Source: Streptomyces oceani
GTDB lineage: Bacteria > Actinomycetota > Actinomycetes > Streptomycetales > Streptomycetaceae
Length of the DNA: 64,000 bases
Assembly (NCBI RefSeq): GCF_001751245.1
Contig: NZ_LJGU01000127.1
Location: 60,959-124,958, forward strand
Reading direction: 5' to 3'
Shown one piece after another: positions 17,624 to 63,592 of the stretch (its first letter is position 1; every line of letters starts with the position of its first letter). The translations under genes and the position numbers were made by a program. The notes under the pieces are model-generated. The model was not told the DNA's origin. It was given only the letters and a program-made list of their open reading frames with translations, and did not search any database.

Positions 17624-17639
17624 CGTTTTCCCCTTACCA

Positions 17640-17727
17640 CAGATAACAGGGCCTCTTCGCGTAGGACCGGGACCAACGTAGCCGCAGGTGGCGTCAGCCG
17701 GCACCGCAGATAATAGAGCGTTATCTG
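17640..17727 (-). other. Candidate internal resolution site of the TnpI-like recombinase
   Basis: CAGATAA (17707-17713) and TTATCTG (17721-17727) form a perfect inverted repeat with a 7-bp spacer, the geometry of a tyrosine-recombinase core site. A third copy CAGATAA lies at 17640-17646 in direct orientation, as an accessory binding site would. The site spans the presumed promoter region of the recombinase gene, so the protein may also repress itself. Confidence 0.6.
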
Positions 17728-18252: not shown

Positions 18253-19392
18253 TCAGCGATCGTAGTACCAGCCCATGCTATTCGGTGTGGATCCGGCGGC
18301 GACGGCGGTCTGCGCGGCGCTGGTGACACGGCCGGCCGGCGGCGCGGTCCGGTCGCGCCGACTCGGTGCGGACGTGCCCACGAACTGGGCGCGCAGCCTG
18401 TCCAGTCCGGGAAGGGCGTCGAGGATCGTACTGAAGGGCAGCCCGAAGTCGACCATGCACGCGATCTCGTTGACTCCCGCGGCCTGGGCCCGACGGACCA
18501 CGGAGGCACACTTCTCCTGGGTGCCCAGCAACGAGCGACGCTGGTAGAAGTCCTCGGCGACCAGCTTGGTCATCTCCTCCTTCTCCGCGGGCGTCATCGA
18601 GGCGGAGGACGCGTCGTTGCTCTTCTGGTTCAGGAACGTGCCGAGATAGCGGCGCACCGGTTCGGCCACCAGGTCCCGGGTCTTCTCCTCGTCCTCACCG
18701 ACGTAGGTGTGCATGCCGGCGGTGACGACGCCCGCTTCCGGATCGTGCCCGGCCTCCTCTCTGGCCTGGCGGTAGCGGGCGATGTTGTCCTCCAGCCGCT
18801 CCCAGCTGTCAACCAGCGTGAGGACGTTGGTGCCCAGCTCACCCGCCGTGATCCAGGTCTGCGGGTTGGACGAGTGCACGATCCACAGGGGCAGTTCGGC
18901 GCGGTGCGGACGCGGATAGGTGCGCACCGGCAGCATGTCACCACCGGGCCCGGGAAACTCGACCCGCTCACCCGCCCACAACCTGCGCAGTACGGGAATG
19001 GTGTCGAAGGCCACGTCGCGCCGCTTGTCGTAGTTCTCCGGGTAGAAGACGAAGTCGCCACTGTGCCAGCCGGTGGCCACGCACAGCGCGGCCCGGCCCT
19101 GGGAGAGCTGGTCGACCAGTGCCCACTCCTCGGCGACCCGGACCGGGTGATGGTGCGGGAGGACCACGCTGCCCGCACGCAGTTCCAGCCGTTCGGTGGT
19201 GACCGCCAGGGCGGCGCTGAGGACCGAGGGGTTCGGGAAGCTGCCGCCGAACTCCTGGAAGTGCCGTTCCGGGGTCCAGATTGCCGCGAAGCCGAGCGAG
19301 TCGATGGTGCGTGCCACGTCAAGGATGAAGCGGTAGCGGTCGCCGAAGGAGTTGTCGTCGTTGGCGGAGAAGAAGTAGACGCTGAATTCCAT
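18253..19392 (-). CDS. Luciferase-like flavin monooxygenase (PKS-associated LLM)
   Basis: The 379-residue protein starts MEFSVYFFSANDD at ATG 19392, 17 bases after the last PKS gene. It is a luciferase-like FMN/F420 TIM-barrel enzyme with FAAIWTPERHFQEFGG, GSVVLPHHHPVRVAEEW and ALCVATGWHSGDFVFYPENY, which matches the subgroup found in PKS/NRPS systems as a domain or separate protein (MupA-like). Such enzymes hydroxylate carrier-bound chains. The C-terminal 40 residues are Ala/Arg-rich and probably disordered. It is the last gene of the operon. Substrate position and stereochemistry cannot be read from sequence. Confidence 0.88.
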   Translation of the reverse strand: MEFSVYFFSANDDNSFGDRYRFILDVARTIDSLGFAAIWTPERHFQEFGGSFPNPSVLSAALAVTTERLELRAGSVVLPHHHPVRVAEEWALVDQLSQGRAALCVATGWHSGDFVFYPENYDKRRDVAFDTIPVLRRLWAGERVEFPGPGGDMLPVRTYPRPHRAELPLWIVHSSNPQTWITAGELGTNVLTLVDSWERLEDNIARYRQAREEAGHDPEAGVVTAGMHTYVGEDEEKTRDLVAEPVRRYLGTFLNQKSNDASSASMTPAEKEEMTKLVAEDFYQRRSLLGTQEKCASVVRRAQAAGVNEIACMVDFGLPFSTILDALPGLDRLRAQFVGTSAPSRRDRTAPPAGRVTSAAQTAVAAGSTPNSMGWYYDR

Positions 19393-19409
19393 GGTGTCCT
19401 CTGCGCTCC

Positions 19410-21125
19410 TCACGAGATCAGGTCGCCGGCCGCACCGGCGGCTGGGCCGCCGAGCGCCGGAAGCATCAACTGGGCCATGGTTCGAAGGCCCTGATCGTGG
19501 ACGATCGTGAAGTGGTCGGCATCCACGTCGTGCACCCGTACGGGCTTGCCGATGAACCGGCCGAAGCCGTTGGTGCGGTCCTCGTCCAGGCGCCGCAGCG
19601 GGGACAGCCCGGACGGGTTCTGTGCGCCCACGAACCCCTGGGTGGCGTGGAAGAAGGTCACGTCCACGGGCTCCGGTAGCGGCTGCGGGACGTACTCGGT
19701 GAGCAGCCTGACGTTCTGGTTGAACGCCTCGTAGGTACGCTCCAGCAGCCGCAGGATGTTGTCGTACGCCAGCGTCACGGGCGCGTTGTCGACGACGTGG
19801 CGCGCGATCAGCCTCAGCTGCTCGTCCTCCTCCCTGCCCAGCAGCGATTCGAGTTTCACCAGCTCGGCTATGTTCCACCGGTGACAGTAGGAGTTGCCGA
19901 GCATCATCAGCGGCAGGCTCTCGGACTCCTCGTCCGTGAGTGAGGACCAGTCCACCCCGGCCCAGGCGGGTGTGGTCGGCATGATGCCGTCAGCGACGAT
20001 CATGGACTGGACCCGCTCGCCCAGGTGCAGGAGCTGACGCGCGACCTCGTAGGCCACCGTGCCGCCGAAGGACGAACCGCCCAGCACGTACGGGCCACCC
20101 GGACTGTCGGCACGTATGGCCGCGACGTACTCGGAGCACATCTCCTGGAAGGTGTCGAACCGGTGCAGGTGCGAGTCCACGTCGATCTGTTCGACGCCCA
20201 TCAGTGGGTAGTCGGCGCCCAGGAACCGCGACAGGTACAGTCCGTAGCTGACGTCACCGTACATGTGGTGCATCCAGTAGGAGCGGTACTTGTCGCCCGC
20301 CTGGTTGATGCGGGTGACGAACTGACGCTTCCGCAGCGGCTTCTCGGCACCCGAGCGCCACTCCCTGCGTAGGTCGACGGCGGCGCCGGCGCTGGTGAGG
20401 TACTCCGGACGGCTCGGCAGGTCGATGGTCCGCGGCGTGTCCGCCAGCCAGCGCTGCCAGTCCCCCGTCGCGGGCTGTCCGTTCGTCAGCGCGCGGACGA
20501 CGGTGATACGCGCCGGACCCGCAAGGGGCCGGGGCGAGTACTCCGCCAGGGCCGTGTTCAGCGCGGTGCGGTGGGTATGGGCCTCCCGCAGCCAGTCCGT
20601 CAGAGCGGCCTCGGGCAGCGGCGGACGCGCGTGCTCGCTGAGCACCCTGGTCGCGTCGGCGAAGTCCGCCTCGTCGGCGCCGCTGCCCGGCACGTCGGCG
20701 CCGAGCCACCGGTACGCGCCCCAGAGAGTGCCGAAGGCACCGGTCAGCGCGCCGAGTCCGCGTCCGATGGGCGTGCCGGGCTCGGGGGCGCCGAGCAGCA
20801 GCAGTTCCTCAACCTGGTGGCCGAGATCCGTCAGTCCTCGGGCAACCTCGAACGCGATCACCGCGCCCGCTCCCTGACCCGCTATGCGGTATGGCCCCTC
20901 GGGGCGGTCCCGGACGATCGCGTCCGTGGCGGTCGCGGCCAACTCCGCCACCGAGGTGAGCGACGCCCGGCCGGCGCCGAACCCGGGCGGCTCCACGCCC
21001 ATGACAGCGCCCCCGTCGGCGAGGGCGGACTGGAAGTGGGTGAGCCAGCTCAGTTCACCGGTGTCACCAGGCAGGCAGTAGACGGGGACACCGGCGACGT
21101 CTGGGACGAAGGAGATCACCTGGGA
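19410..21125 (-). other. Tandem thioesterase: inactive TE0 then active TE
   Basis: The first alpha/beta-hydrolase copy reads YRIAGQGAGAVIAFE at the elbow: Gly 4173 replaces the nucleophile Ser, and no catalytic His is evident. The second reads YVLGGSSFGGTVAYE near residue 4440 with His in DVDADHFTIV near 4623, so it can act. The active copy should release the chain by lactonisation or hydrolysis. Confidence 0.82.
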
Positions 21126-24100
21126 TTCGCTCGGAGGTTCCTCCTTCTCGGCGGACTCCTTCCCGGCGGGTGTCGTCGCCTCGTCCTCCGGAGCGGCGAC
21201 GCTCGCCCGAACCGAGGGCTGGGTGTGGCGCGTTGAGGCGTCAGACGGGTGGACGTCCGGAGTCTGGACGTCCGGAGTCCGGTGGTCGGGTTCCTGTGCG
21301 GGGGCGGGCCCGGTGACCGTCGCCGCCGGGTCGGGGCTCGTGGCGGCGATGTGCTCCACGAGGCGGTTCAGTGTCGGATACTCGAAGATCGCCGCCATCG
21401 GGATCTGGTCACCGAACTTTCCCTGCACCCGCTGCATGATCCGCAAGGCGACGATCGAGTCGATGCCGTACGCCGCGAAGTCCTTCGCGGGATCGACGTC
21501 CTCCGGTGGCAGCCCTACTCCCTGGGCCACCATTTCCCGGACTTGCCAGGCCACATCCGGCGCGTTACCGACCGTGTCCATCAGGTGGGTCTCCTCTCCT
21601 GTGTCCGTGTGCTGCCGCTGGGCCACAGAGACGGACGACGGCTCGGCGACCGTTGGCTCAGCGGCGGTCCTCACCAACTCCGGCTCCGCCTCGGCGACCG
21701 GTTCCTTCCGTCCCGTCGTGCCCTCGTCCGGTATCGCCGTGCGCTCGTCCGGCAGCGCGGTCTCGCCCCGTACCGGGTGTTCACCGCTCGCCAGGGGCTC
21801 GGGCAGCCAGTACGAGTCCGTCGCGAACGGGTAGGCCGGCAACGGAACCCGCCGCCCGGACACGCCCTCCGGTTCCGGCCACTCCGTCCCCTCCTGGCGC
21901 ACCCACCGGACCGCCGACTCCCGCATGGGGCCGTCGCCCTCGGGCTCGCGACCGACGTGCCCCTCGACGTACCCACGCAGCCGCCGCACGAGTTCGGGCA
22001 GCGTGCCGGCGATCACCGCGAGCCGCACCTCCATGGCGGGCCGCCCCACCCGCAGGGTGTACGCCACGTCGGCAGGCCGGTGGGAGCCTTCCTCCAAACG
22101 GTCCGCGAGGGACTCCGCGTACCGGCGTAGCCTCTCGTCGGTCCGGGCGCTCAGCACGAACAGGTGCGGGCCCGAGTCGCTGTGCTCCGGTTCCGGCTCC
22201 TGGGACACGTCCGGCTCGTACTCCTCAACAACCACATGGGCGTTGACACCGCCGAAGCCGAACGAGCTGACGCCGGCCCGACGAGGCAGTTCACCGCCCC
22301 GCCCGTCCGGGAGTCTGTCCCAGGGCTTCAGCTCGTCGAGGAGGTGGAACGGTGTGCCGGCGAGTTCGATGAGCGGGTTGACGCGCTCGACGTGCAGCGA
22401 GGGTGGCAGTTGCTGGTGCTGTAGCGCCTTGATCACCTTGATGAGGCTGGCGACGCCGGCGGCGGTCTCCAGGTGCCCGACGTTCGTCTTGACGCTGCCG
22501 AGCGCGCAGTAGCCCGTACGGTCACCGGCGCCCAGCTCACGGTACGCCTGCACGAGGCCGTTGACCTCGATCGGGTCTCCCAGAGCCGTACCCGTGCCGT
22601 GTGCTTCGAGGCAGGTGACGGTATCCGCCCGTACCCCCGCGGCACGATGGGCGCGCACGATGACGTCGGCCTGTGCCTCCGGGTTGGGAGCGGTCAGGGA
22701 GTTCGCACGCCCACCGTGGTTGATGGCGGTGCCGCGTACGAGGGCGTAGACGTGGTCCCCGTCGGCCAACGCCCGGCTGAGCGGTTTGAGCAGCAGCGCC
22801 GCGACTCCCTCACCGCGCACGTAGCCGTTGGCACGGTGGTCGAAGGTCTTGCACAGCCCGTCGGGCGCGAGCATCCCGGACTTGCCGAAGGCCAGAAACC
22901 CGGTGGGCGACAGGATCGCGTTGACCCCGCCGGCCAGCGCGGCGTCGCACTCACCGGACCGGATCGCCTGTACGGCCCGGTGCACCGCGGTCAGCGAACT
23001 GGAGCACGCCGTGTCCACTGGCTCGCTCGGGCCGCGCAGCCCCAGCAGGAAGGAGATCCGGTTGGCCAGCACGCTGTGCGCGTTGCCGGTCGCGGCCTGC
23101 CCGTCGACCTCGACACCGTTGCTGATCAGCAGCTGCGCGTACTCGGAGGAACCGACGCCGACGAACACGCCGGTGCCGGTGCCCTCCAGCGAGACCGGAT
23201 CGTGGCCCGCGTCCTCGACGGCCTGCCACGCCGCCTGAAGGAACAGCCGGTGCTGCGGGTCCATCGTGCGGGCCTCGCGCTTGGATATGCGGAAGAACTC
23301 GGGGTCGAAGTGGTCGATGCCGCTGAGGAAACCGCCCCAGCGGGACGGCACACGCTCGGGGTCCTGACGCGGGTCGCCGTAGATGTCCCGCCAGTCGAAA
23401 CGGTCCGCGGGAATCTCCTCCACCAGGTTCCGGCCCGCGGCCAGGTTGTCCCAGTACGCCTCCAGATCCGGTGAGCCCGGGAAGCGACCCGCCATGCCGA
23501 CGATCGCCACGGGGTCGTCGGTGACCGGCGCGGGCGAGTCCCCGGAGGCGGACGGTGCGCCGGCGATCCGTTCCGGCCCGGGCACACGCGCGGCGAGGGT
23601 CTCCACGAGCGAGTTGATGTCCGAGTGGGCGTACAGTTCCGGCGCCAGAACCTGTGTCCCCAGCCCCTCACTGAGTACTTCGGCCAGTTCGGTGAGGGTG
23701 ATCGAGTCGAATCCGAAGTCGCTGAGGTGGTCGTCGGGCCCCACCTCCTCTCGCGCCAGGCTGAGTACCGTGCCGATGGCGGAGGCCGTCAGGTCGTACA
23801 CCCGGTCACGGACCCGCTCGGCGACCCCGCCCCCGCCGGGCTCGGTCTCACTCACGGGCGCGGCCTCGCGTACGGGCGCGGCCTCGCGTACGGGCTCGGA
23901 CGCCTCCGGTTCGGGCAGCCAGTACCGCTCCCTGGCGAACGGGTAGCCCGGCAGCGAGATCACGGCCCCCGCGCCACCGTGCTCACGCCAGTCCACGTCC
24001 CCGCCGTCGGCCCAACCGCGGGCCGAGTGCGCCTGTCGCGTCGGCAGCAGATCGATGTCCGGGTCCACGTCCAGCACACCGCCCGCCAACCGGTCGAGCT

Positions 24101-27100
24101 TGGCCGCCAGTTCCGGCAGGTCTCGCGCGACCAGCACCGTGCGGACGCGTAGTGACTCACGCCCCCTGCGCAAGGTGTGGGCGACATCGGCGAGGTCCGA
24201 GCCACTCCCCGCGCCTTGCAGGAACTTCCCCAGCAGGGAAGCGAGTTCACGCAGAGCCTCGGGCCGGCGGGCGGAAAGCGGGATGAGCTGCGGGCCCTGG
24301 CCTCCCCGGGCCAGGGGATCCGGCTCCGCCGTTCCGGGCGGGCTCTCCACGATGAGCTGGGCGTTGGCGCCGCCCGCGCCGAAGGAGCTGATCGCCGCAC
24401 GCCGGACCCGCGTGCCGTCATCCCCCACGGGCCAGGGGGTCTCCTCCCGCACCAGTTCCAGTGCCGGGCCCCCGCCGCCCGACAGGGCCGCCGCGGGCGT
24501 GTCGACGTGAATGGTCGGGGTGATCACCCCGGCCCGCATCTGGAGCAGCACCTTGGTGAGCTGCGCGACGCCCGAGGCGGCCTCCAGGTGGCCGACACTG
24601 GGCTTGAGTGAGCCGACGAGCACCGGCCCGTGCCCGGCGTCCCGGCCGGCGAAGACCTGGCTCAGCGCCGTCGCCTCGACGGCGTCGGCCAACGGCGCGC
24701 CGGTCGCGGCGGCCTCGACGTACTGGATCGTATCGGGAGTCCGCCCGGCCCTGCGTAGCGCCCGGCCGAACAGCGTCGCCTGCGCGTCCGCGTCGGGTGT
24801 GGTGTACGTCGACTCGCCGGCGTTGTGGTTCACGGACGACCCGGCGATCACCGCGTGCACACGGTCGCCCGCGCGCCGGGCGGCGGAGAGCGGCTTGAGT
24901 ACGACGGCACCGACGCCCTCGCCCGTCACCATCCCGTCGCCGTCGGGATCGAAGGCGCGAGCACGACCGTCCCGGGACAGCATCTTGGCCGCCGACAGCT
25001 CCGCGTGGTGGCTGGGGTGCAGGATGAGGTTCACCCCGCCGACGACCGCGGCGCCGCAGTCGCCCCGGCGGACACTCTCGCAGGCGAGGTGAATCGCGGT
25101 GAGCGAGGACGAACAGGCGGTGTCGACCGCGATACTCGGGCCGGAGAAGGCGAAAGTGTGCGAGACCCGGTTGGCGAGTGACCAGCCGGAGGAGCTACCG
25201 GTCAGTCGTTCCCCACGGCCCCAGCGCTCAGCCAGCAGGGACTGGTACGGGGTGTGCATGGCGCCGGCGAACACGCCGACCCCCGCACCCGTACCGGAGA
25301 CCGCGTCGGCCTCAATCCGGGCGCGGGTCACGCCCGCGTCCTCCAGGGCCGCCCAGACGGTTTCCAGGAGCAGCCGCTCCTGCGGGTCCATGCCCGCCGC
25401 GTCACGAGGCGAGATGCGGAACAACAAGGGGTCGAAGCGGTCGACACCGTCCAGGAAGCCGCCCCAGCGGGTTTCCTCGCCGTCAGCGGCCGACTTCCGG
25501 GGGCCGTTCCGCTCCGGGACGTGCCAGCGGTCGGCCGGGACCTCCCCGATCGAGCATCGTCCCGCGCGGAGGTTGTCCCAGAAGGACCACAGGTCGTCCG
25601 CGCCCGGATAGCGCCCGGCGACACCGACCACGGCGATCGGGTCGTCGACGGGTGCGGCGTCGCCCGGTGTGGGCTGGCGGAGGTCCCCGGTGGCACCGGG
25701 TACCGCCACGGTGCTCCGGTCCGGCACGGTCGTCCCGGCGAAGTCGTGCGGACGGGTGTCCGTGGCGGGCCCCGGCCCGGCGCTCTCCTCCGGCCCGGAC
25801 ATGGACTCAGGCGGCGCGACGTCCATGTCCGTCAGTAGCTGGGCCACCTCAACCAGCGTCTTCCCGTCCAGGGCCTCGCCGAAGGTGACACGGCGACCCA
25901 GTTCACGCTCCAGGGAGTCCGTGACGTCCATGACGACCAACGAGTCGACGCCGTACGCCAGCAGTGGCACGGAGTCCTCGATCTCGGACTCGTCGAGCTT
26001 CAGTGAGCTGGCGAAGAGACCGCGCAGCAGACCGGTCAGCTGTCCGCGAGCGCGGCCCGCCCCGGCCGTGTCCGGGACGGGCCGCGGCGCCCGCTCCGGC
26101 GACGGTCCGATGTCCGGGCGCGACAGTACGGACTTGGTGGCGTCCTCGCGCCCGTCGGAGCCGCCGGTCCGCAGGTTGCCGCGTTCGGCCAGCAGCAGGC
26201 TCTGGTCCGCGTGCGCGTCCTCCTCCGCCGTGGCGGGGAGGGCGCGCACGTTCCGCAGGCCCGTGGCCGCGAGCACCGCGCCCCAGGTCTCGGGGCCGAG
26301 CAGCGGCGAGTGCGGCAGGCGCAGGTGCCCGTCGCCGTACAGCCACCAGCCCTCGGTGAGGCCGAAGATGAGGGTGACGGCGTCCAACACGGAGGTCGAC
26401 TCGTTGATGGCGAGCAGGGCACCCGGACGCATCAGCGCCGACACGTTGTGCAACGTGGCCCGCAGGTCGGGCGTGGCGTGCAGGACGTTGGCGGCGACCA
26501 CCACGTCGTACCGCCGGTCGGCGAGGTCCTGTGTACCGAGATCCGCTCCTATGTCGAGAGTCCGGAAGACCGCCTCGGGATACTCCGGGCCGAACCGCTC
26601 CTCGGCCTGTCGGACGAGCGCGGGCGAGAGGTCGGTGCAGACGTAGGACGGTGGGTCCCCGGTCTCTCGGAGAGCTTCCATGAGGGGGCGGGTGGTGCCT
26701 CCGGTGCCCGCACCCACCTCCAGGACGGAGACCGCCCTGCCCGGATCGCGCTGTCGCAGGTCGGTCACCCGGCGGACGACCGCGGCCGTGCACATCCGGT
26801 TGAAGTGCCGCGAACGTGGGTCGTCGTGGTAGAGAGCGGCGAGCCGGTGCTGGGAGCCGCCGGGGAACAGCACTTCCAGTCCCCGGCGCCGACCGGTGAG
26901 TACCTCGGCCAGGGACGCCGCGCAGTCGGCGATCAGTTCGACCGCCGGGGCACTGAACGGGTGATCGGCGGTCAACCGTTCGCGCAGTTCCGTCCGGTCG
27001 TGCCGTTCGTACGGATCGGCGGGGAAACGGAGCCGGCCGTCTTCCTCCTCGGCGAGGTCGCCGCCGACCAACGCGGCGAGCAGAGCGTCCCACAGCCGCC

Positions 27101-33100: not shown

Positions 33101-33385
33101 TGGCCGTCGGCACCAGGTACTGCCCGAGGTGGTCCTGGCCCTCGGCGCCTCCGGAACGCAGCACGACGACGAGGGCGTCAGCGTCCGGGAGGGGCTGGGT
33201 CACACGCGTGGACGCGGCCCACCCTGACTGGTAGTGAACGATCTGGTGGTTGCCGGACGGGGTGGGTGTCGCGGCCGTCCGTGACATGGCGAGCCGCCGC
33301 AGAAGGACGGCCGCCTCGCGGGTGTCCAGTTCCCCCCGGCGTACCCGGTCCAGGATCTCCCGCTTCACCGCTGCTGGGTTGGCGT

Positions 33386-33389
<4 letters not shown>
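19410..33389 (-). CDS. Trans-AT polyketide synthase 3 (modules 7b-10, tandem TE)
   Basis: The 4659-residue protein starts at ATG 33389, overlapping the PKS2 stop (ATGA); an upstream frame extension is only antisense to PKS2's register. Order: helical docking segment (1-35), KR (about 250-400), ACP (Ser 564), KS8 (660-1085), DH (1270-1560), KR (1780-1930), C-methyltransferase (about 2090-2390), ACP (Ser 2483), KS9 (2580-3010), ACP (Ser 3229), KS10 (3292-3715), ACP (Ser 3978), TE0 (4090-4340), TE (4375-4659). No AT domain is present. KS9 lacks a catalytic His. The first KR-ACP completes the module whose KS ends PKS2. It receives the chain from PKS2 and releases the product. Confidence 0.95.
21340..23520 (-). 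other. PKS module 10: KS10-ACP
   Basis: KS10 is complete (DTACSSS, HGTGTALGDP, TNVGHLETAAG). The ACP has YGIDSIVAL. There is no reductive domain, so the last beta-carbon would stay a ketone before release. Confidence 0.85.
23590..25640 (-). other. PKS module 9: non-elongating KS9-ACP
   Basis: KS9 keeps Cys (DTACSSS) and SVGHLEAASG, but the HGTGT region reads VEAAATGAPLAD, so the first catalytic His is lost. It should only hand the chain on. Its ACP has FGFDSITLT. Confidence 0.83.
25830..31415 (-). other. PKS module 8: KS8-DH-KR-cMT-ACP
   Basis: KS8 is complete. The DH has SDHLVEGRAVVAG (the usual Pro is Ala) and VDAGVLDGALHA. The KR has VGGAGGLGRAV and GQGNYSAASTF. The C-methyltransferase has VLEVGAGTGGTTRPL. 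The ACP has YGVDSLVVM. The expected unit is an alpha-methyl enoyl, a possible substrate for the trans PfaD reductase. Confidence 0.85.
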
Positions 33390-46032
<12,643 letters not shown>

Positions 46033-46036
<4 letters not shown>

Positions 46037-55000: not shown

Positions 55001-58000
55001 CGGCCCTCGGTGAGCAGATCCCACAGTTCGTCGACCGTGTCGGCACCCGGATAGCGGCCGGCCAGCCCAACCACCGCGACGGCCTCGTCCACTACTTCCG
55101 TCGTGTCGCCGGACGGCACGGCGACGGCCGACGGCGGCGCCTGAGTCGCGCGCGTCTCCCGCGGGCTGTCCGCCAGGGAACGGGCCAGGTCGTCGATGCC
55201 ACGGTGCTCGAACAGCAGCGTCGTGGGCAGTTCGCGACCCAGCCGTTTCTCCAGCGCCACCGTGAGGTTGACCGTGTCGAGCGACGACAGGTGCAGCGCC
55301 TCGAACGTGGCGTCGGTGGTGACCGGGACACGCGGATGCGCCAGCGTACGCGCGAACACCTCCCGTACGGCGGTGCGTACGGCGTCCAGGTCGGTGGTGT
55401 CGGAGGAACCGCCGGCGGCCGGGCGCCGCCCGGCGCCCTCGGGAGACGGTTCGGAGTCGGTGCCGTGTACGCGTTGGTTCAGCGCCGCGAGGTCAGGTAC
55501 CCGTTCGGCCAGTTCGGTCAGGGTGGCGAGTCGCACCGGGTCAAAGGGTGCGCTGGCCAGCTCACGTTCACCGCCCGCGGCCTCCTCGGGGGCACCGGCC
55601 TCCTCCGGGCGGAAGGTGATGGCGGCGGTGTGCTCGACCGGCATCCGGTAGCACACGGAACCGTCGTCACGCCGCCGGGCGTGCTCGGCCGCCACGGACT
55701 CCAGGAAGGCGTGGGCCGGTTCGTTCTTCGGCGTGGGCCGGAACTCGGCCTCCAGGAAGCGTGCTCCGTCCGCGCGGGCCAGTGTGCCCAGTCGGGCCAG
55801 CAGCTGGTGTTCGACACCACGGCCCAGCACCCGGCAGCTCATCAGGAAGGTGTCGAGTACGACGGTGTCGCTGTCGCGGTCCTGCCGGGTGAGCGCCGCC
55901 CCCACCAGTCCGTAGTCGCCGAAGCGGTCGCGTACGTCGGCGACCCAGCAACGCGCGTCGGCACCGTAGTCGGTGAGCACGCCACGGATCTCCGCCTCGG
56001 TGCGCCGGATGGTGGAGAAGTTGAACTGGTTGGTGCGCTGCGTGAGTTGGGCGACCCGCGCCAGGTCGCTGTCCGTGGCCCTTCGCACGTCGATGGTCAG
56101 GTCGAGGTCCGCGATGAAGTCGGCGAAGCTGAGCGTCGTCCGTCGAAGACCCTCCCGCTGACGGTGCGCCGTGTAGGTGTCGGCACGCCTCCGGTCCTCC
56201 GCGGTGACCTCCGGGCTGTCGAAGGCCCAGATCCGCTCCAGTAGGCCGGGAACCTGACCTGGTTGGTCCGCGGGGAAGGTGAGGGCCAACACCTGGGGGC
56301 ACGCGGAGCGTACCGAGGCGACCTCCACCGGGTTGTCGTCGAGGAACACGAAACTGTCGAGTCCGAGACCGAGTTCGGCGGCGAGTGCGGCGAGACCCCG
56401 CGCCTTTGGCTCCCAGTTGATCCGCCAGGCGGCCAGGTGCTCCCAGCGCAGCGGCATCGTGGTCCGGCGTCGGAACACCTCGGCGACGCCGTCCTCGTCG
56501 TTCTTGCTGGCGAGGCAGATCAGGACGCCGCGCTCCCGCAGCCGCAGGGCCCACCGCTGGAGCTCCAGGTGGGCGTCGTCGAGGATGACGCCGTCCGGCC
56601 CGTCCTCCCCGCACACCCCACGCCACAGGGTGTTGTCGCAGTCGAGCACCAGCACCTTGAACGGAGCGGAGAGAAGGCCGTGCGCGGAGCGCGTCAGCGC
56701 GGTGCCCAAAGCGGTGTAGGCGGGGTCCGTGTAGGGGATGTGGGCGTGAGCGAGCCGGGCGGGGTCGTGGTAGTCATCCGTCTCGTAGCCGGCGCCCCAC
56801 CGGTCACCGCCGGTAAGGTGAACCCCGCTCAACTCGGCGAGTTCACGGTTCAGTGTCTCCCTCGCCTCATCGAGCGCGCGAGCACGGCCCCCGACCGCGG
56901 ACGAAGGCTCGGGGGGGCAGATGTGCACCAGCAGCGGGGCGCCTCGCGCGGCGGCGTAGGACCCGGCGGCGGCCACGAAGTCGTCGACGGTACGGGCGAG
57001 GTTCCCCTCAGCCGCCACCCAGTCCTCCGGGCGCAGCAGCACGGCGTTGCAGCCGCCGTCGTTGCGACGGAAGGCACTCCGCGGGTCGAGGAGTTCGCGG
57101 AACACCTGGCCGTACGAGGCGAATTCGAAGCGGAGCCCGAGGCGCCTGCCCCAGTACTCCAGTACGGGGGCCAGCGGGTCGGAGGTGAACGTGCCGGCGA
57201 TCACCAGGGCCGGACCCACGTCGTGGTCCGGTTCCGTATCGGGCGGCCCCGGTCTGGAGGTGGGAACGGACCGGGCCGAACTCGGCGGCGTCTCGTCGTT
57301 CGCGGCCCGCGCGTCAGCCCCCGCGTCCGCCGGCGCGTCGTCCCCCACGTCCGCCAACGCCTCGGTCCGCGCGTCCGCCGACGCCTCGAAGGTATCCAGC
57401 AGGTGTGCCCGGCCGGGTTCGGCCTCCTCCAGAACGCGGCCCACCACGGCGGCGGCGACCGGCTCGACCGGCGTGCCCCCGCGCTGCCCCGCGATGCCGC
57501 CCGACAGGGACGTCGCCAGCCGGGGCGGCCGGACGATGAGGAACCTCGCCGTGGGGTACTCGACGGCGGCGCCGTGCAGGAGACCCTCCACGGCGTACTT
57601 CGCGGTGACGTAGTGCGAGCGCCCGGCGGGTGGTTCGATCACCCACTGGGAGGACAGGGCGAGCACCCACCCATGGTTGTCCGCCACGTCCCTGGCGAAG
57701 GCGGACAACGGACCGCGGGTGAGGGCGAGGCTGTCCGCGACGTACGCGTCCGCGCGTTCGCCCGCCGCCGCGTCCAGGCCGAGGGTGTTCACCGGTGGGC
57801 AGGCGCTGAGCAGCAACACGTCGAGGCGTCCCTGCTCGTCGATGACGCGTTCGCGTGCCTCCGCGCACCAGGCGGGATCGGACCAGTCGCCCTGGAGGAG
57901 ACGCAGCCGCCCGGACGCCTCTCCCAGGCCGGAACGCACCGCCTCGGCTTCCGCGCGGCTGCGGTGGTATCCGCCGTACACCGTGGCGCCCCGCAGTACG

Positions 58001-58887
58001 AGTGCCTGGGTGAGGGCGGCCCCCAGTCCACGACTGGCGCCGACGACGAGTGCCACCCGCCCGCTGAGCGCCGTGTCGGAACGTCCCAGGTTCTCCAGCA
58101 CGCCCTGTGCCCGGGGGGCCGGTGGCTCGTCGCGTACCAGTGCCTCGGCGTCGACGGTCCCGGTGAGTCCCGGCCCGGACACCCGCCCGGTCAGCTCCAG
58201 GCGACCGAACCTGGCGTCCACGGTGGTGACCTCCGCGTGCGCCCCGGGTACGGACGTCGCCGCCCCCGACCGGAGGCTGACGGCGTAGCGGGAGGCGAGT
58301 GCGGGCCGCCCGGGCGCCTCCATCCCGACCAGGTAGCTGGCCCAGCCCAGGAGCGCCGCCAGCGGCACGGTGACTCCGGCGCGTGCCGCGCCGCTACGCT
58401 CCAGCAGTTGGTCGTACGCCACCTCGTCGGGGGCGAACGCGGCCGTGGTCAACTCGCCCGGCGTCAGGTCGTCGAGGGCGCGTACCGCGGCGACGCGGCG
58501 CGGCGTCCCGGATGCCGGTGGCAGCTGCCCGGTCGTCGGCGCCGCGTAACCGACCTCAAGGTCGAGGACGGGACGGGCTCCGTCCGTGATCCGCACCCGC
58601 GCCCGCCCCTCACCCGGTTCGGTTGTCGCGGTGTAGTGCTGTCCCGTGAAGATCGGGGCGTGGAAGCGGGCTTCGAGGGAGGCTGCCTCCTGACCTTCCG
58701 CCGGCTCGGGGAGGGTGGCCAGCGCCCGCAACACACCGAGGGCGCCGTGCACCACGGGCTGGCCGAAGGAGGTGTGCCGCGCGTAGACCTCGTCGGTGTG
58801 CAGCGGGCTGTGGTCGCCGCTGGCCCGCGCGAAGGTCTCGACGTCCTCGCCGACGACACGGAACGGGATCGCGGATGTGGTTGGCAT
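46033..58887 (-). CDS. Trans-AT polyketide synthase 1 (FkbH starter module to KS3)
   Basis: The 4284-residue protein starts MPTTSAIPFRVVG at ATG 58887, 20 bases after the AT gene; the longer upstream frame overlaps that gene and lacks homology. Order: MaoC-like hot-dog (1-125) with a second hot-dog-like stretch (about 130-265), SDR (275-500), FkbH-type HAD/GNAT domain (about 560-1110), ACP (Ser 1202), KS1 (1269-1690), KR (2097-2240), ACP (Ser 2398), KS2 (2513-2935), KR (3381-3545), ACP (Ser 3675), KS3 (3770-4180). No AT domain is present, so extender units come from the separate AT encoded just upstream. The protein ends soon after KS3, leaving its DH-ACP on PKS2. Confidence 0.95.
47740..51352 (-). 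other. PKS module 2: KS2-KR-ACP
   Basis: KS2 has the complete Cys-His-His set (DTACSSS, HGTGTELGDP, SNIGHLESAAG). The KR has ITGGTGGLGAAV and Tyr in LVDYGSANAYLD; its usual LDD-type loop reads SADQRN, unlike the other KRs. The ACP has LGVDSILL. Confidence 0.85.
51390..55086 (-). other. PKS module 1: KS1-KR-ACP
   Basis: KS1 has Cys in DTACSSS, His in EAHGSGTELGDP and His in SAIGHLESAAG, so it is condensation-competent. The KR has VTGGAGGIGG and GQSDYAAANRYL. The ACP Ser is in SYGFTSVLL. Confidence 0.85.
51493..51530. repeat. 6-bp repeat encoding Glu-Pro/Gln-Pro linker in PKS1
   Basis: CCGGCT and GCGGCT units in tandem encode alternating Glu-Pro and Gln-Pro after the module 1 ACP. Confidence 0.8.
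55138..58887 (-). other. PKS starter module: MaoC-like, SDR, FkbH, ACP
   Basis: The MaoC-like domain shows SGDHSPLHTDEVYA and FGQPVVHGAL. The SDR has VVGASRGLGAAL and the YxxxK pair in SHYVTAKYAVEG. The FkbH domain carries the HAD motif VLVLDCDNTLWRG near residue 744 and SKNDEDGVAEVF. The ACP has LHLSSLDTVNL. FkbH domains load a glyceryl group from 1,3-bisphosphoglycerate onto ACP. The hydratase and SDR fused in front could then dehydrate glyceryl to the pyruvyl tautomer and reduce it to lactyl. Confidence 0.8.
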
Positions 58888-58907
58888 TCCCTGAACCCTT
58901 TCTGCGG

Positions 58908-59780
58908 TCAGCTGGTGGCCATGGCCGGAACCGGCCGTTGGGCTCGGATTTGACCGATCAGACCGGTGAGTACCTGGCCGGGGCCGAGCTCGTGGAACTC
59001 GGGCTCGGGCTGGTCCAACAGGAAGTCGACGGAGTCGCTCCACCGCACGGGGCTGGTCAGCTGCCGAGTCAGCAGGTCGGGGATCTCGTCGTCCTCGTAG
59101 GGCCGAGCGGTGGCGTTGGAGATCACCGGGATACGGAGCCGGACGAAGCGGTATCCGGCGAGGAACCGCTCGAACTCCGTGGCCGCCGACGCCATGTGAC
59201 GCCCGTGGAAGGCGCCGCTCACCTTGAGCGGGAAGACGGCCTTCGCCTCGTCCTTCAGCAACACGCTGGCGGCGGCTAGGTCGTCCGCGGTACCCGAGAG
59301 GACCGTCTGCTCGGGCGCGTTGAGGTTCGCGACGTCGACTGGTGGAGCGTCGTCCCGCTCCAGGACGCTCCGCACCTGGTCGGCCGTCAGGCCGAGCACC
59401 GCGGTCATCCCTCCGGGAGCCGCCTCGGCCATCAGCGTGGCCCGGCGGGTGACGAGTTCGAGCCCGGTGACGAAGTCGAAGGCGCCCGCGGCGAACAGGG
59501 CTACGTACTCACCGAGGCTGTGGCCGGCCACGAAGTCCGGGGTGACACCGGACTCCCGGACGCGTTCGACGTACGACAGGGCACCCACCGTGTACATCGC
59601 GCACTGCGTGTAGCGGGTGTCCGCGAGCAGTTCCGGCGGGCCTTCGAGACACAGCTCCTCGATGGAGTAGCCGAGGACGGCGTCCGCCTGCCGCACGAGA
59701 TGCGGGTAGCTCTCGAAGAGTTCCTTTCCCATGCCCAAGCGGTGCGCGCCCTGGCCGGGGAAGACGTGGATGACCGTCAC
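58908..59780 (-). CDS. Trans-acting malonyl-CoA:ACP acyltransferase
   Basis: The 290-residue protein starts at GTG 59780 (MTVIHVFPGQGAHR). It is a stand-alone FabD-fold AT with the nucleophile Ser in GHSLGEYVALFAAG near residue 90, the oxyanion GQGAH, LVTRRATLMAEA and the malonyl-type GAFHGRHM loop, where the catalytic His sits. It should load malonyl onto all extension ACPs of the three AT-less PKS proteins. It is followed by PKS1 after 20 bases and preceded by the PfaD gene. No second AT or acyl hydrolase is present in the window, so it probably serves every module. Confidence 0.95.
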   Translation of the reverse strand: MTVIHVFPGQGAHRLGMGKELFESYPHLVRQADAVLGYSIEELCLEGPPELLADTRYTQCAMYTVGALSYVERVRESGVTPDFVAGHSLGEYVALFAAGAFDFVTGLELVTRRATLMAEAAPGGMTAVLGLTADQVRSVLERDDAPPVDVANLNAPEQTVLSGTADDLAAASVLLKDEAKAVFPLKVSGAFHGRHMASAATEFERFLAGYRFVRLRIPVISNATARPYEDDEIPDLLTRQLTSPVRWSDSVDFLLDQPEPEFHELGPGQVLTGLIGQIRAQRPVPAMATS

Positions 59781-59916
59781 ATCAGTCCTTTCTGCGGGAC
59801 TCGACCGGGTCGGCCAGGCGAGGGAGGCGTCCGGGGGTCTTCGTGTGGACTCGGACGGCCCGACACTCGCCAGCCGTGCGTGGTGCGGCCGCCGTGGCTG
59901 CCGCGGCTGCCGGGCG

Positions 59917-61380
59917 TCAGGGTGGGCCCTCGGTAGCCGGGTGTGCGGAGGCCGGCCCGGAGACACCGGGGAGTGCCGCGGTCTCGTCCAGCCGGCGCTG
60001 CCACAGCTCCGCCGCACCGTCCATGAGGAGTTCGGCCAGCTCGTCGACGTGCCGTGCCCGCCAGCTCTCCCGACTGGTGCCGCGCAGCATGCTGTTGAGC
60101 GCTCCCAGGGAGGGGCCGCACGCGATCTGGTAGTCGACGCGCTGTTCCGCGGATCCGTTCATGGCGAGCCGTGAGGAGTGCACGAAGTACCACTTGAAGG
60201 TCAGGATCATCCGCAGCTTCGGGTCGTGCTCGGCGGCGACCAGCTGGTCCGGGTCGCTTTTCCGCAGGTACTCGGAGGTCTCCTCCCACACCTCCTCGAA
60301 ACTGCGGTGGAAGTACTTCGTCTGGATCTGCCGGGCTGTCCTCTCGTCCAGATCCTCGAGGGAGTCGTGCCGCAGGGTCAGCTCGTACAGCTTGTTCGCG
60401 CGGGTCGGGAACAACAGGCCCTTGCGCAGGACCTGCGCCTTGGCCCCGATCTCCAACATGTCCCCGGCCGGCACGATCGCGGTGTCCTGTACGCCGGCCT
60501 GCTGGAGCATGTCCTTGACGGCGTCGCTGGTCCCCGCCTCGACGGTGCACTGGTTGATACTGCCGGTGAGGACGAAGTCGGCGTTCATCATGAAGGCGGC
60601 GGCGACCGCCTCCGGCGTGCCGATCCCGCCGGCGACGCCGATCCGTACGCTCGCGGCTCGCGGTACGGTCTCCGCGGCCATCCGGTCGCGGAGCCGCGCG
60701 ATGTCCGGGAGCAGGGTCACCATCGGTCGCTGGTCCGTGTGGCCGCCGGAGTCGGCCTCCGCGCAGATGTCGTCCGCCATGGTGATGTGGGTGGACAGCT
60801 CCGCCTCCTCGGCGGTGACCCGTCCGGCCCGCAGCAGGTCGCGGACGATCCCGGCGGGCGGGGGGCTGAGGAACGCCTCGGCTGTTTCGGGCCGGGACAC
60901 CTTCGCGAGCACCTTGTGGGGTGCCGTCACGCCGCCGTGCGGAGCGCGGGTCAGCCCGGTGACCCGGTAGCGCACCAGGGCGGGCGACATCTGGATGAAC
61001 GAGGCCGCCTCCAGACGGGGTACGCGGTGCGCGAGGAGGAGGTCGACCATCTCCTCCTCCTTGTGCGGGGCGCCGGGCGCGGACAGCAGGTTCATCCCGT
61101 ACGCCCGGTCCGGCCCCAGGGCACCGTTGAGGTTCCGGATCACCTCCTCGACCCTCTCGGTACGCACCCCGCCGGTACCGAAGTAGGCGAGCAGCCCGGC
61201 CTTGGCCATCCGGGCGACCATCGCCTGGGAGGCCGTCCCCTTGTACATCGAGCCGGCGACGTACGCGTAGCGCACGCCGTGGTCGCCCCGGAACTCCGCC
61301 GACCCCAGATACTCCGGCGGCAGTCGCCGCGCCGTCGGGGGCGCGGCGGTTATGGTGCCCTCCTGCTCCATGTGATTCAT
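59917..61380 (-). CDS. PfaD-type trans-acting enoyl reductase
   Basis: The 487-residue protein is a PfaD-family flavin enoyl reductase, a nitronate-monooxygenase-like TIM barrel. Typical segments are YVAGSMYKGTASQAMVARM, LLAYFGTGG, RIGVAGGIGTPEAVAAAF, FVLTGSINQ and the C-terminal KYFHRSFEEVWEETSEYL. In trans-AT systems PfaD proteins reduce ACP-bound double bonds at chosen modules. Here the candidate substrates are the enoyls formed at modules 3 and 8. It lies directly upstream of the AT gene in the same operon, 136 bp apart. ATG 61380 is followed by a second ATG nine bases on; either may be used. Confidence 0.95.
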   Translation of the reverse strand: MNHMEQEGTITAAPPTARRLPPEYLGSAEFRGDHGVRYAYVAGSMYKGTASQAMVARMAKAGLLAYFGTGGVRTERVEEVIRNLNGALGPDRAYGMNLLSAPGAPHKEEEMVDLLLAHRVPRLEAASFIQMSPALVRYRVTGLTRAPHGGVTAPHKVLAKVSRPETAEAFLSPPPAGIVRDLLRAGRVTAEEAELSTHITMADDICAEADSGGHTDQRPMVTLLPDIARLRDRMAAETVPRAASVRIGVAGGIGTPEAVAAAFMMNADFVLTGSINQCTVEAGTSDAVKDMLQQAGVQDTAIVPAGDMLEIGAKAQVLRKGLLFPTRANKLYELTLRHDSLEDLDERTARQIQTKYFHRSFEEVWEETSEYLRKSDPDQLVAAEHDPKLRMILTFKWYFVHSSRLAMNGSAEQRVDYQIACGPSLGALNSMLRGTSRESWRARHVDELAELLMDGAAELWQRRLDETAALPGVSGPASAHPATEGPP

Positions 61381-61469
61381 GTCCTGTCCGTGTCCTCGCC
61401 CGCGCGCCGCGCGGAGGAGTCGATGGTCACTTGGACTGGCGGAACCGGCCGTGGGCCGCGGACCGTTCG

Positions 61470-61967
61470 CTACTCGGCCGCTTTCTCGAACCGGTCGAAC
61501 ACGGCGGGGACCTCGGTCGCGAGATGGCTGTAGAGGTGTTCGAGCCGCACCAGCCGCTCACGACGCTCCTCGGAGGCGCCGTCGAGGACCTCCAGGCCCC
61601 GCTGGAGCACCTGGTGGAACTTGGGCATGTGGACGAGTGAGTGACGCACCGCCTTGGGCCAGTTGTGCTCCGGCAGTACGAGCCGGTAGTCGTCGCCACC
61701 GGGCTCCTCGTGCTTCTCGAAGACACCCGGGGTCGCCAGCAGTTTCGCCGCGTGGTCGACGTCTCCCGCGGTGACGCCCAGCGCTTCGACGATCTGGCTG
61801 ACCCGCTGCTCGGCGGGGTCGCAGATCATCATGTAGCCGAAGACGTAGCCGGTGTTCCAGGCCATGTTGTCGATGCGCCGGTAGTGCTCGGCCACCTTGT
61901 GGACGAAGGCGCGTTCCTTCTCGGTGAGGCTCGCCGCCGGTGGCGGCTGGTCCGCTTGCTCGGTCAT
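61470..61967 (-). CDS. GbsR/MarR-type transcriptional regulator, copy 2
   Basis: From ATG 61967 the protein is 165 residues. It has the GbsR-like layout: a helical start (KERAFVHKVAEHYRRIDN), a segment YMMICDPAEQRVSQIVEAL, the HTH around LGVTAGDVDHAAKLL, a wing with LVLPEHNW, and a C-terminal helix ending in LATEVPAVFDRFE. It is a clear paralogue of the next upstream gene, with the same length and shared motifs, so the pair arose by tandem duplication. It lies 89 bp upstream of the PfaD gene and so may control the PKS operon. The ligand is unknown. Confidence 0.83.
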   Translation of the reverse strand: MTEQADQPPPAASLTEKERAFVHKVAEHYRRIDNMAWNTGYVFGYMMICDPAEQRVSQIVEALGVTAGDVDHAAKLLATPGVFEKHEEPGGDDYRLVLPEHNWPKAVRHSLVHMPKFHQVLQRGLEVLDGASEERRERLVRLEHLYSHLATEVPAVFDRFEKAAE

Positions 61968-62022
61968 GGTCGTCCTCTCGCGTGGCGGGTCTGCGGGGCG
62001 CGGTCGCGTGACGGCACGCCCG

Positions 62023-62529
62023 TCAGGGGCTGACGGTGGTGGCCGGTGGTTCGTACCGGTCGAAGACCGCGGGAATCTCATCGCCCAGGTAGCGGAAGAA
62101 CTGCTCCATGTTGACCAGGCGGCGACGTCGCTCCTCGGAGGCGTCGGCGAGGGCTTCGAGCCCGTACCGCATTACGGAGTGAAAGGACGGCAGCGCGAGC
62201 ATGGCCTGCTGAACGGTCTGGGGCCAGACCTCGGCGTTCATGGCCAGCGAGTACTCACCGTCCGGCAGTTCCGTGCGCTCCAGCACTCCCGGGGGCACCA
62301 GGAGCTTGTCGATATGGTCGACGGCCTCGCGGCTGACTCCGAGCACCTCGCACAGCCGGCTGGCGGGCTGTTCGACCGGATCGCTGATCATCAGCCATCC
62401 GATGAGGAAGCCGTGCTCCCACGCCATCCTGTCGGTGTCCCGGTAGTGCTCCGCGACGCGGTTCACGTAGTCCCGCTCGTCTTTGGTGAGCCCAGGAGTC
62501 GCCGGCTTGTCATCGCTGAGTGCTGGCAT
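62023..62529 (-). CDS. GbsR/MarR-type transcriptional regulator, copy 1
   Basis: The 168-residue protein starts at ATG 62529 after an AAGGGGCG ribosome site; an upstream in-frame extension is unconserved. It shows the same layout as its neighbour: RDYVNRVAEHYRDTDRMAW, GWLMISDPVEQPASRLCEVL, HTH at LGVSREAVDHIDKLL and the end YLGDEIPAVFDRYE. The stop is 55 bp from the start of the second copy, so they are probably co-transcribed. GbsR proteins are dimeric winged-helix repressors, and two divergent copies could form heterodimers. A 15-bp tandem repeat lies about 22 bp upstream of its start. Confidence 0.83.
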   Translation of the reverse strand: MPALSDDKPATPGLTKDERDYVNRVAEHYRDTDRMAWEHGFLIGWLMISDPVEQPASRLCEVLGVSREAVDHIDKLLVPPGVLERTELPDGEYSLAMNAEVWPQTVQQAMLALPSFHSVMRYGLEALADASEERRRRLVNMEQFFRYLGDEIPAVFDRYEPPATTVSP

Positions 62530-62550
62530 GTAACGCCCCTTCACGGTATC

Positions 62551-62580
62551 CGGTGGACGAATCGTCGGTGGACGAGTCGC
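62551..62580. promoter_or_regulatory. 15-bp tandem direct repeat upstream of GbsR copy 1
   Basis: CGGTGGACGAATCGT and CGGTGGACGAGTCGC stand head to tail (13 of 15 identical), 22 bp upstream of the start codon. Direct tandem copies could be regulator sites for autoregulation. No symmetry within a unit is obvious. The surrounding 208-bp gap (62530-62737) holds no gene. Confidence 0.4.
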
Positions 62581-62737
62581 GTCTGAGCCTCGCGCGCGCG
62601 GCTCACTCGGACACCAGGGTTCACCCCCAGCATTCACCGCCTGTGACCCCCGGGAACGGGCCCCGGGATCGCGGGTACGTGCCGACAGCGGACCGTGCGC
62701 CTGGTCAGCGAACCCGCCCGGGTGGCGAGCCGGGGTC

Positions 62738-63592
62738 TCATTCCCAGCCGTCGAGAGCCTCCTGGACGGTGGAGACGATCCCGGCGTCCAGCGTCGTGGC
62801 CACGTCGATGTCCGTGGTGCGGCCGAGTCCCACGTCGCGCACCGCCGCGCTCATCCGGAACGCCACTCCGTGGACGTACCGGATGTCGCTCCGGAAGGAC
62901 CACTCGGAGCCGGTCGCGGGCGTCCCGTCCGGCCGGTGGACCCGCACGGGTTCCCCTTCCGGCCCGAAGCCGAACGCGTCGAACGGGAACCGCTGACCCT
63001 GGCCGATGGCCTTGGTGTACGACTCCTTCAGAGTCCACAGCCGCAGCAGCCCCGAGGCGCGTTCACGCGGTGGCAGCGCGTCGAGGTCCCCGCGTTCCCG
63101 CACCGTGCAGACACGCCTCTCCAACCCGGCCGCGCGGAGTCGCCGGTCCGCCGGTTCGGCGTCGACACCGATCAGCCCACGTGTGGTCAGCCCCACGAGC
63201 AGCAGGTCCGCGGTGTGACTGAGGCTGATGTCGATCTGGTCGCAGCCCCGCACCGCGGGACGCCCGGTCGGCCCGCGGGTGAGTTCTATCTCGGCTACGT
63301 CGGTGCACAGCGCCACGGCCACCGCGTGCCCGAGCAGCAGGTGGGAAGCGGCACGGCGCTCGCGTGCCGCGGCGTGTGCCAGCTGGCGTCGGCCGGTCCG
63401 GCCGCCACCGACGGCCGTCGACAGGGTCTCGTTGTCCGCCGCCTGTGGACGCCAGTCGGGGAGCCGCCCGTGGACGAGCACGCTGCCGTGCGCGTGCAGG
63501 GTCTCGCGCGCCTCGATCCACTCGTCCCGTCCATCGGCCGTCACCGCGATCGACGCGCCCAGCCCGGCGACGCCGTACGAACGCCGCCTCAC
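62738..63592 (-). CDS. Sfp-type 4'-phosphopantetheinyl transferase
   Basis: With GTG 63592 as start (overlapping the upstream stop, GTGA) the protein is 284 residues; a longer frame to 63685 would overlap that gene by almost 100 bp. The Mg-binding motif is LIGVDAEPADRR and the second signature is LWTLKESYTKAIGQG, with QIDISLSHTADLLLVG before them, the pattern of Sfp-type PPTases. It should convert the ACPs of PKS1-3 from apo to holo form. Its place at the head of the cluster, coupled to an acyl-CoA-dehydrogenase-like gene, supports that. Confidence 0.92.
   Translation of the reverse strand: MRRRSYGVAGLGASIAVTADGRDEWIEARETLHAHGSVLVHGRLPDWRPQAADNETLSTAVGGGRTGRRQLAHAAARERRAASHLLLGHAVAVALCTDVAEIELTRGPTGRPAVRGCDQIDISLSHTADLLLVGLTTRGLIGVDAEPADRRLRAAGLERRVCTVRERGDLDALPPRERASGLLRLWTLKESYTKAIGQGQRFPFDAFGFGPEGEPVRVHRPDGTPATGSEWSFRSDIRYVHGVAFRMSAAVRDVGLGRTTDIDVATTLDAGIVSTVQEALDGWE

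What the first reader, a model, noticed from the sequence alone, without database searches (positions are those of the whole stretch)
18253..63592. Unrecognised trans-AT polyketide cluster with ten KS domains and two-plus split modules
Three AT-less PKS proteins, one trans AT, one PfaD reductase, one LLM oxygenase and a PPTase form a compact minus-strand operon. Combining an FkbH starter, two non-elongating KS domains, two split modules, two C-methyltransferases and a tandem TE does not match any pathway I can name. The predicted chain is C3 plus seven or eight acetate units with two methyl branches. Domain order is read from the sequence; the chemistry is inferred from family rules.
Basis: partly seen in the sequence, partly recalled or inferred. 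Interest (0 to 1): 0.85.

Follow-up and report, generated by a model that had tools for sequence, protein, structure and literature searches.

The report
Probable boron-macrodiolide antibiotic gene cluster
A Streptomyces-like bacterium carries a ten-ketosynthase assembly line whose module order, starter enzymes and tailoring enzymes fit the old boron-binding antibiotics boromycin and aplasmomycin at most steps, with a set of sugar genes alongside that may make a sugar-bearing version.

Summary
In detail: ten KS on three AT-less PKSs, with trans AT, PfaD, MupA-type LLM, PPTase, FkbH loading region, two C-MTs and two split modules. The first C-terminal TE-like domain lacks the catalytic serine. 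'Matches no pathway' is probably wrong. KS5 and KS9 have each lost an active-site histidine and KS3 sits in a split KS//DH bimodule, which leaves seven elongations on a C3 starter: a C17 chain methylated at C4 and C8, with C7 oxygen, C3 ketone and C2 hydroxylation, i.e. the boromycin/aplasmomycin half-molecule (structures recalled). MaoC-SDR and FkbH have homologues beside LkcE in a lankacidin cluster, where lactoyl-ACP comes from 1,3-bisphosphoglycerate. The cluster occurs in eleven other genomes and one S. anulatus plasmid, as a ten-KS form (type A, includes the window) and a nine-KS form without KS5-ACP (type B). Just outside the window, trideoxysugar and glycosyltransferase genes sit between transporter and regulator genes of the conserved cluster; they were not found in type-A relatives as far as searched. 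A glycosylated macrodiolide is plausible, unproven. Unresolved: no KR for C9, no DH for C11, no nearby adenylation domain for boromycin's D-valine.

The parts
46033..58887 (-). PKS1: MaoC (58084-58884), SDR (57364-58083), FkbH (55684-57246), ACP (55180-55371); KS1-KR-ACP; KS2-KR-ACP; KS3 (46300-47592) at the C-terminus
   Evidence: start M53
53785..55086 (-). KS1
50044..51357 (-). KS2
46300..47592 (-). KS3, end of PKS1, pairs with the DH-ACP that opens PKS2; Cys-His-His triad intact, no KS linker family after it
33386..46036 (-). PKS2: DH-ACP | KS4-KR-ACP | KS5-ACP | KS6-MT-ACP | KS7
43247..44581 (-). KS4
39389..40690 (-). KS5, NIGA replaces NIGH: probably non-elongating; module present in type-A clusters only
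37517..38830 (-). KS6, followed by C-MT (35972-36559) and no KR
33971..35314 (-). KS7, end of PKS2, pairs with KR-ACP of PKS3
19410..33479 (-). PKS3: KR-ACP | KS8-DH-KR-MT-ACP | KS9-ACP | KS10-ACP | TE-like (no Ser, 20370-21302) | TE (19440-20342)
30090..31421 (-). KS8
24309..25646 (-). KS9, EAAATGA: first active-site His lost; lost at this position in 7 of 7 clusters aligned
22188..23519 (-). KS10
18253..19392 (-). MupA-family FMN-dependent luciferase-like monooxygenase (candidate C2 hydroxylase)
   Evidence: TIGR04020 404 bits, cut-off 244; start; 36% identity to the MupA-family LLM on plasmid pTML1; nearest solved structure PuwE 6ket, E 4.9e-88
58908..59783 (-). trans AT (malonyl-ACP transferase); start approximate
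   Evidence: TIGR00128, translation
59917..61380 (-). PfaD trans enoylreductase
   Evidence: TIGR02814 615 bits
61470..61967 (-). small DNA-binding-type protein 1
   Evidence: no Pfam or NCBIfam family for the ORF; profile of the pair matches PDB 4nb5 DNA binding protein, E 1e-11
62023..62529 (-). small DNA-binding-type protein 2, 47% identical to the first
   Evidence: no family for the ORF
62738..63685 (-). 4'-phosphopantetheinyl transferase
   Evidence: PF01648

Best explanation
The cluster makes a boromycin/aplasmomycin-type boron macrodiolide. FkbH loads glyceryl from 1,3-bisphosphoglycerate; MaoC and SDR convert it to lactyl (C15-C17, 16-OH). KS1-KR sets C15-OH. KS2-KR plus KS3//DH gives the C12=C13 olefin. 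KS4-KR, with the extra KS5-ACP, processes C11. KS6-MT adds the C8 methyls. KS7//KR sets C7-O. KS8-DH-KR-MT with PfaD gives 4-methyl and saturated C5. KS9-ACP passes the chain on. KS10-ACP leaves the C3 ketone, and the MupA-type LLM hydroxylates C2, making the motif that closes to the C3/C7 hemiketal and binds borate. The TE joins two C17 chains. Shown: domain order, KS motifs, conservation. Inferred: the chemistry at each step, dimerisation and boron binding.
For: Domain order. Nine KS positions each form one clade across 7 clusters (support 0.993-1.0; 66 KS). KS9-position histidine lost in 7 of 7 and KS5 histidine in 3 of 3 clusters aligned, giving C3 + 7 x C2 if KS3 is also non-elongating. 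MaoC-SDR and FkbH are each about 40% identical to separate genes on S. griseofuscus pSGRIFU1, near LkcE (PDB 6f32 match) and beside an annotated ACP gene; PMC6162330 (passages) has lankacidin's starter as pyruvoyl- or lactoyl-ACP from 1,3-bisphosphoglycerate and proposes lactoyl. MupA hydroxylated only the beta-keto substrate (PMC10952193, passages), the state expected on ACP10. Type B lacks KS5-ACP but keeps the LLM in 9 of 9 records, so the LLM is not tied to that module. KR2 lacks the Asp that marks B-type KRs (motif rule recalled; alignment), compatible with a Z olefin. One type-B cluster lies on a linear plasmid of S. anulatus; aplasmomycin came from S. griseus (PMC13029266, passages).
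Against: The KS6 module has no KR although C9 carries OH in both antibiotics (structures recalled). No DH in the KS4/KS5 modules to remove C11-O for boromycin. KS3 keeps an intact triad, so eight elongations are possible. The KS5+KS3 grouping has support 0.996 but 0.343. No AMP-binding domain is near (only one on the contig, at C117:273959), so nothing local explains boromycin's D-valine. Five type-B records carry a homologous gene next to the LLM, annotated as a methyltransferase in S. anulatus, with no obvious use in aplasmomycin. The window's loading ACP itself gave no tblastn hit in the lankacidin stretch. No proven boron-macrodiolide cluster was compared by sequence.
Confidence: 0.68

Rival explanations
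1. An unrelated monomeric trans-AT polyketide (lactyl or glyceryl starter, seven or eight extensions) ending as a lactone, pyrone or free acid.
For: KS3 has an intact triad and could elongate; the C9 and C11 states do not fit the boron antibiotics without trans enzymes; P450 genes kept at the clusters have no clear role in boromycin or aplasmomycin.
Against: Needs a chance coincidence of starter, extension number, methyl positions, C7 oxygen, C3 ketone and alpha-hydroxylase with a known family.
Confidence: 0.22
2. The MupA-type LLM hydroxylates at the KS4-KR-ACP-KS5(0)-ACP bimodule (mupirocin-type alpha-hydroxylation bimodule) and not at C2.
For: PMC10952193 (passages) describes alpha-hydroxylation bimodules that often house a KS0; KS5 is a KS0 after a KR module.
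Against: Type-B clusters have the LLM without KS5-ACP (9 of 9 records); KS5 did not group with TML_K1, the histidine-lacking KS in the PKS gene next to the LLM on pTML1 (weak supports).
Confidence: 0.12
3. A tartrolon/hyaboron-type macrodiolide.
For: Same product class; tartrolon is treated as a trans-AT pathway in PMC7329324 (passages).
Against: The tartrolon cluster has a KS numbered 13 (PMC11260071, passages) against ten KS here.
Confidence: 0.05

Closest known systems
Boromycin (Streptomyces antibioticus)
   Same: Recalled: C17 half-chains from a C3 starter, C4 and C8 methyls, C7-O, C3 hemiketal, C2-O, C12=C13 olefin, C15/C16 oxygens; each maps to a module except the states of C9 and C11
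   Different: No adenylation domain near for D-valine; sugar genes next to the cluster; boromycin's own gene cluster not available to compare
Aplasmomycin (Streptomyces griseus)
   Same: Same half-chain logic (recalled); nine-KS type-B clusters, one on an S. anulatus plasmid, fit it better than the window does
   Different: Window has the extra KS5-ACP; assigning type B to aplasmomycin is inference
Lankacidin starter genes (S. griseofuscus pSGRIFU1)
   Same: MaoC-SDR and FkbH about 40% identical, for a lactoyl-ACP starter
   Different: Separate genes there; fused into the loading region here
MupA family LLMs (mupirocin; plasmid pTML1, recalled as thiomarinol)
   Same: TIGR04020 family; about 36% identity to the pTML1 protein
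   Different: Probable site is C2 on the last ACP, not a KS0 bimodule

Membership tests
trans-AT modular PKS | PKS modules without AT plus discrete AT | tested here: met
boromycin/aplasmomycin pathway | C3 glycerol-derived starter | tested here: met
   FkbH, MaoC and SDR in the loading region; lankacidin parallel; starter chemistry itself inferred
boromycin/aplasmomycin pathway | seven acetate extensions | tested here: inconclusive
   seven if KS3, KS5, KS9 do not elongate; KS3 triad intact
boromycin/aplasmomycin pathway | C-methylation at C4 and C8 | tested here: met
   MT in the KS8 and KS6 modules only; double methylation at C8 not testable
boromycin/aplasmomycin pathway | C3 ketone and C2 hydroxyl | tested here: met
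   last module KS10-ACP without KR; MupA-type LLM; site inferred
boromycin/aplasmomycin pathway | ketoreduction at C9 | tested here: not met
   no KR in the KS6 module; a trans or neighbouring KR would be needed
boromycin/aplasmomycin pathway | dimerisation to a macrodiolide and borate binding | not testable with these tools
   one TE with GxSxG
boromycin | D-valine ester | tested here: not met
   no AMP-binding domain near the cluster on C117; a gene elsewhere is not excluded

The most novel reading that the evidence does not exclude
The window's strain makes a glycosylated boron macrodiolide: a C17-dimer ionophore carrying a 2,3,6-trideoxy (probably O-methylated) hexose, attached by the activator-dependent glycosyltransferase encoded next to the cluster.
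Probability: 0.33. Interest if true: 0.7.

Novelty: new variant of a known kind. Interest (0 to 1): 0.5.

Why it matters
It gives a testable gene-to-structure map for boromycin/aplasmomycin-type antibiotics (activity on mycobacteria: PMC12339860, passages; on coccidia and malaria parasites: PMC7274485, passages), for which I saw no gene cluster in the listings and passages read. The ten-KS and nine-KS forms offer a test of what an extra KS0-ACP does, and the sugar genes point to a possible unexplored branch of the family.

Tried and rejected
Paper searches: (trans-AT, FkbH, MaoC, polyketide) none; four papers, listing only; four papers (3 listed), passages of one read (PMC10952193); nine papers, listing only; (boromycin, biosynthetic gene cluster) four papers, passages of two read (PMC12339860, PMC11555687), neither describing a cluster; (aplasmomycin) 22 papers, passages of two read (PMC13029266, PMC7274485); (boromycin, antiSMASH) none; (tartrolon, polyketide synthase) 13 papers, passages of four read in all (PMC11260071, PMC7329324, PMC8868522, and PMC13029266 already named); seven papers, passages of two read (PMC6162330; PMC7296167, which held none of the lactoyl or PQQ terms); (macrodiolide, boron, glycosylated) three papers, of which PMC13029266 was checked for sugar terms (no glycosylated boron macrodiolide in the passages shown). 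Comparing KS5 and KS9 with KS domains of pTML1 was uninformative: weak supports. Considered and rejected: lankacidin itself (different architecture); LLM acting at KS5 (type B keeps the LLM without KS5). Not done: structure prediction, MIBiG comparison, comparison with tartrolon or hyaboron clusters.
Full report
Observation. The window is C117:60959-124958 of a 6.31 Mb genome. Three minus-strand ORFs carry ten KS and no reported AT; AT, PfaD, LLM and PPTase are discrete. Order: MaoC-SDR-FkbH-ACP | KS1-KR-ACP | KS2-KR-ACP | KS3 // DH-ACP | KS4-KR-ACP | KS5-ACP | KS6-MT-ACP | KS7 // KR-ACP | KS8-DH-KR-MT-ACP | KS9-ACP | KS10-ACP-(TE-like)-TE. KS5 has NIGA and KS9 EAAATGA; the other eight, KS3 included, keep Cys-His-His. 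The loading ACP keeps its serine (SSL).

Conservation. PfaD as a query matched 91 of 392 same-genus genomes, own included, at E <= 1e-100; five besides the window had 59-79% identity over most of the query, and all five have the cluster. G073 (66%, but only 236 residues) and the matches of 53% identity or less were not fetched as clusters; HMMs on 29 short loci found the small DNA-binding-type genes only at the window (L021) and at those five relatives (L026-L030, one copy at L030). The MaoC-SDR region matched 11 of 394 family genomes, own included, at E <= 1e-40: the window, G217 again, six new genomes that were fetched and have the cluster, and three with open frames of 587-671 aa that were not examined. 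With the S. anulatus plasmid NZ_CP109126 that makes 13 clusters: ten KS (type A) in the window, G217, G342, G655; nine KS (type B, no KS5-ACP) in G269, G115, G145, G672, G560, G680, G674, G698 and S. anulatus. G115 and S. anulatus show the same architecture and a 99.8% identical P450, so they count as one; G217 and G342 are also close to each other. My single-sequence MaoC HMM did not report a MaoC hit in 4 of 13 (G672, G680, G674, G698), although the MaoC-SDR query aligned there from residue 7 or 9 on. The G217 contig ends near the end of KS10. PKS identity to the window is about 66-78% for G217/G342 and 41-58% for the G269/G115/G145 segments, apart from one 67% KS segment. A tree of 66 KS from seven clusters (the six left out) puts each of nine shared positions in one clade (0.993-1.0); KS5 is sister to KS3 (0.996), but in a smaller set with outside KS that grouping has 0.343. 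The KS9-position histidine is lost in 7 of 7, the KS5 histidine in 3 of 3 (G655 not checked).

Mechanism. If KS3, KS5 and KS9 do not elongate, the chain is C3 + 7 x C2 = C17. Numbered from the carboxyl end: KS10-ACP leaves C3 keto; KS8-DH-KR-MT (plus PfaD) gives 4-methyl and CH2 at C5; KS7//KR gives C7-OH; KS6-MT methylates C8; KS4-KR sets C11; KS2-KR with KS3//DH gives C12=C13; KS1-KR gives C15-OH; the starter is C15-C17. This is the boromycin/aplasmomycin half-chain. The structures and the outcome of the aplasmomycin labelling work are recalled; of Chen, Chang and Floss (JACS 1981, 103, 4565) I saw only the citation, in the reference list of PMC13029266. The LLM belongs to the MupA family; MupA hydroxylated only the beta-keto form on its ACP (PMC10952193, passages), which suits ACP10 and would give the 2-hydroxy-3-keto motif. 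Because nine of nine type-B records keep the LLM without KS5-ACP, the KS5 module is not its required site.

Starter. The MaoC-SDR and FkbH parts match, at about 40% identity, separate genes on S. griseofuscus pSGRIFU1, and at 38-41% on a plasmid of Streptomyces sp. NBC_01224; the window's loading ACP gave no hit there at E 1e-3. On pSGRIFU1 they stand beside an annotated ACP gene and near a gene that matches PDB LkcE over its full length, i.e. lankacidin genes. [quoted passage not shown] Its reference list cites He et al. [quoted passage not shown]

Termination. By eye, the first TE-like domain of the window, G342 and G655 has AGQGAG, AGQGCG and AGHAAG where GxSxG is expected; the second TE has GxSxG in 12 of 12 clusters checked (G217 lacks it, its contig ending earlier). 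An inactive TE-like domain plus an active TE is the reading for the window; dimerisation is inferred from the product class. The TE's best solved match is 7r0x 'Polyketide synthase', E 3.6e-14.

Tailoring flank outside the window. Upstream of the LAL regulator lie a glycosyltransferase of the activator-dependent family (TIGR04516, 472 bits, cut-off 440), a SARP, a P450, a NanM-family sugar O-methyltransferase, a nucleotide-sugar reductase/epimerase, an RfbH-type 3-dehydrase (661 bits, cut-off 423), a 2,3-dehydratase, a Gfo/Idh oxidoreductase, RmlB (by eye) and RmlA, then an ABC pair and a second P450. The set fits a 2,3,6-trideoxyhexose. The ABC permease is 58-62% identical in G115, G680, G674, G698, G672 and G217, 37-39% in G145, G655 and G560, present as a 64% C-terminal piece at a contig end after the LLM in G342, and without match in G269. 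In G115, G680, G674, G698, G672 and S. anulatus the order is ABC-ABC-P450-LAL-cluster, without sugar genes. In G217 the order P450-P450-ABC-ABC-P450 without sugar genes stands on another contig (C102), with P450s 56-79% identical to the window genome's, so its link to that cluster is inferred. The window genome's P450s are only 33-37% identical to the type-B P450 of S. anulatus. I conclude that the sugar genes lie inside the conserved cluster boundary in this genome. The glycosyltransferase had no match at E <= 1e-20 in G217, G342 (86% complete) or G655, and matches in 5 of the other 8 genomes, each at another place than the cluster; the other sugar genes were sought only in fetched flanks. 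No other KS lies between C117:116044 and 203553, so no other polyketide aglycone is obvious nearby; other kinds of aglycone were judged only from gene size and first residues. No protein in the genome exceeds the cut-off of the P450-derived activator family (best 188 of 343 bits), which weighs against the glycosyltransferase having its usual partner.

Open problems. C9 needs a ketoreduction and C11 (for boromycin) a dehydration that the modules do not show; no AMP-binding domain for D-valine is near. The identification rests on architecture, not on a sequence match to a proven cluster.

Noticed in passing
C117:129671-143676 (L001 5672-19677), outside the window: Trideoxysugar biosynthesis genes, activator-dependent glycosyltransferase, SARP and P450 lie between the LAL regulator and an ABC transporter pair of the conserved cluster.
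   Followed up: yes
window 63589-65388 (L001 548-2347): A 599-aa protein with weak acyl-CoA-dehydrogenase/DszC-type similarity lies between the PPTase and the LAL regulator; tblastn found no match in the clusters and flanks of the relatives searched.
   Followed up: partly
61470-61967 and 62023-62529: Paired small proteins without a Pfam or NCBIfam family, present (one or two copies by PfaD) at the 13 type-A/type-B clusters, similar to a solved DNA-binding protein.
   Followed up: partly
window 7911-17704: Tn3-family transposase pieces and two phage-integrase-family genes border the downstream side of the cluster.
   Followed up: no
window 4718-5803: Ku-family protein gene near two tRNA genes (7276-7349 Asn, 7569-7644 Met).
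   Followed up: no
NZ_CP109126.1 165211-167943: Ketoacyl-ACP synthase III family protein, alpha/beta hydrolase and a methyltransferase sit beside the type-B cluster of S. anulatus; a homologue of the methyltransferase follows the LLM in four further type-B records.
   Followed up: no
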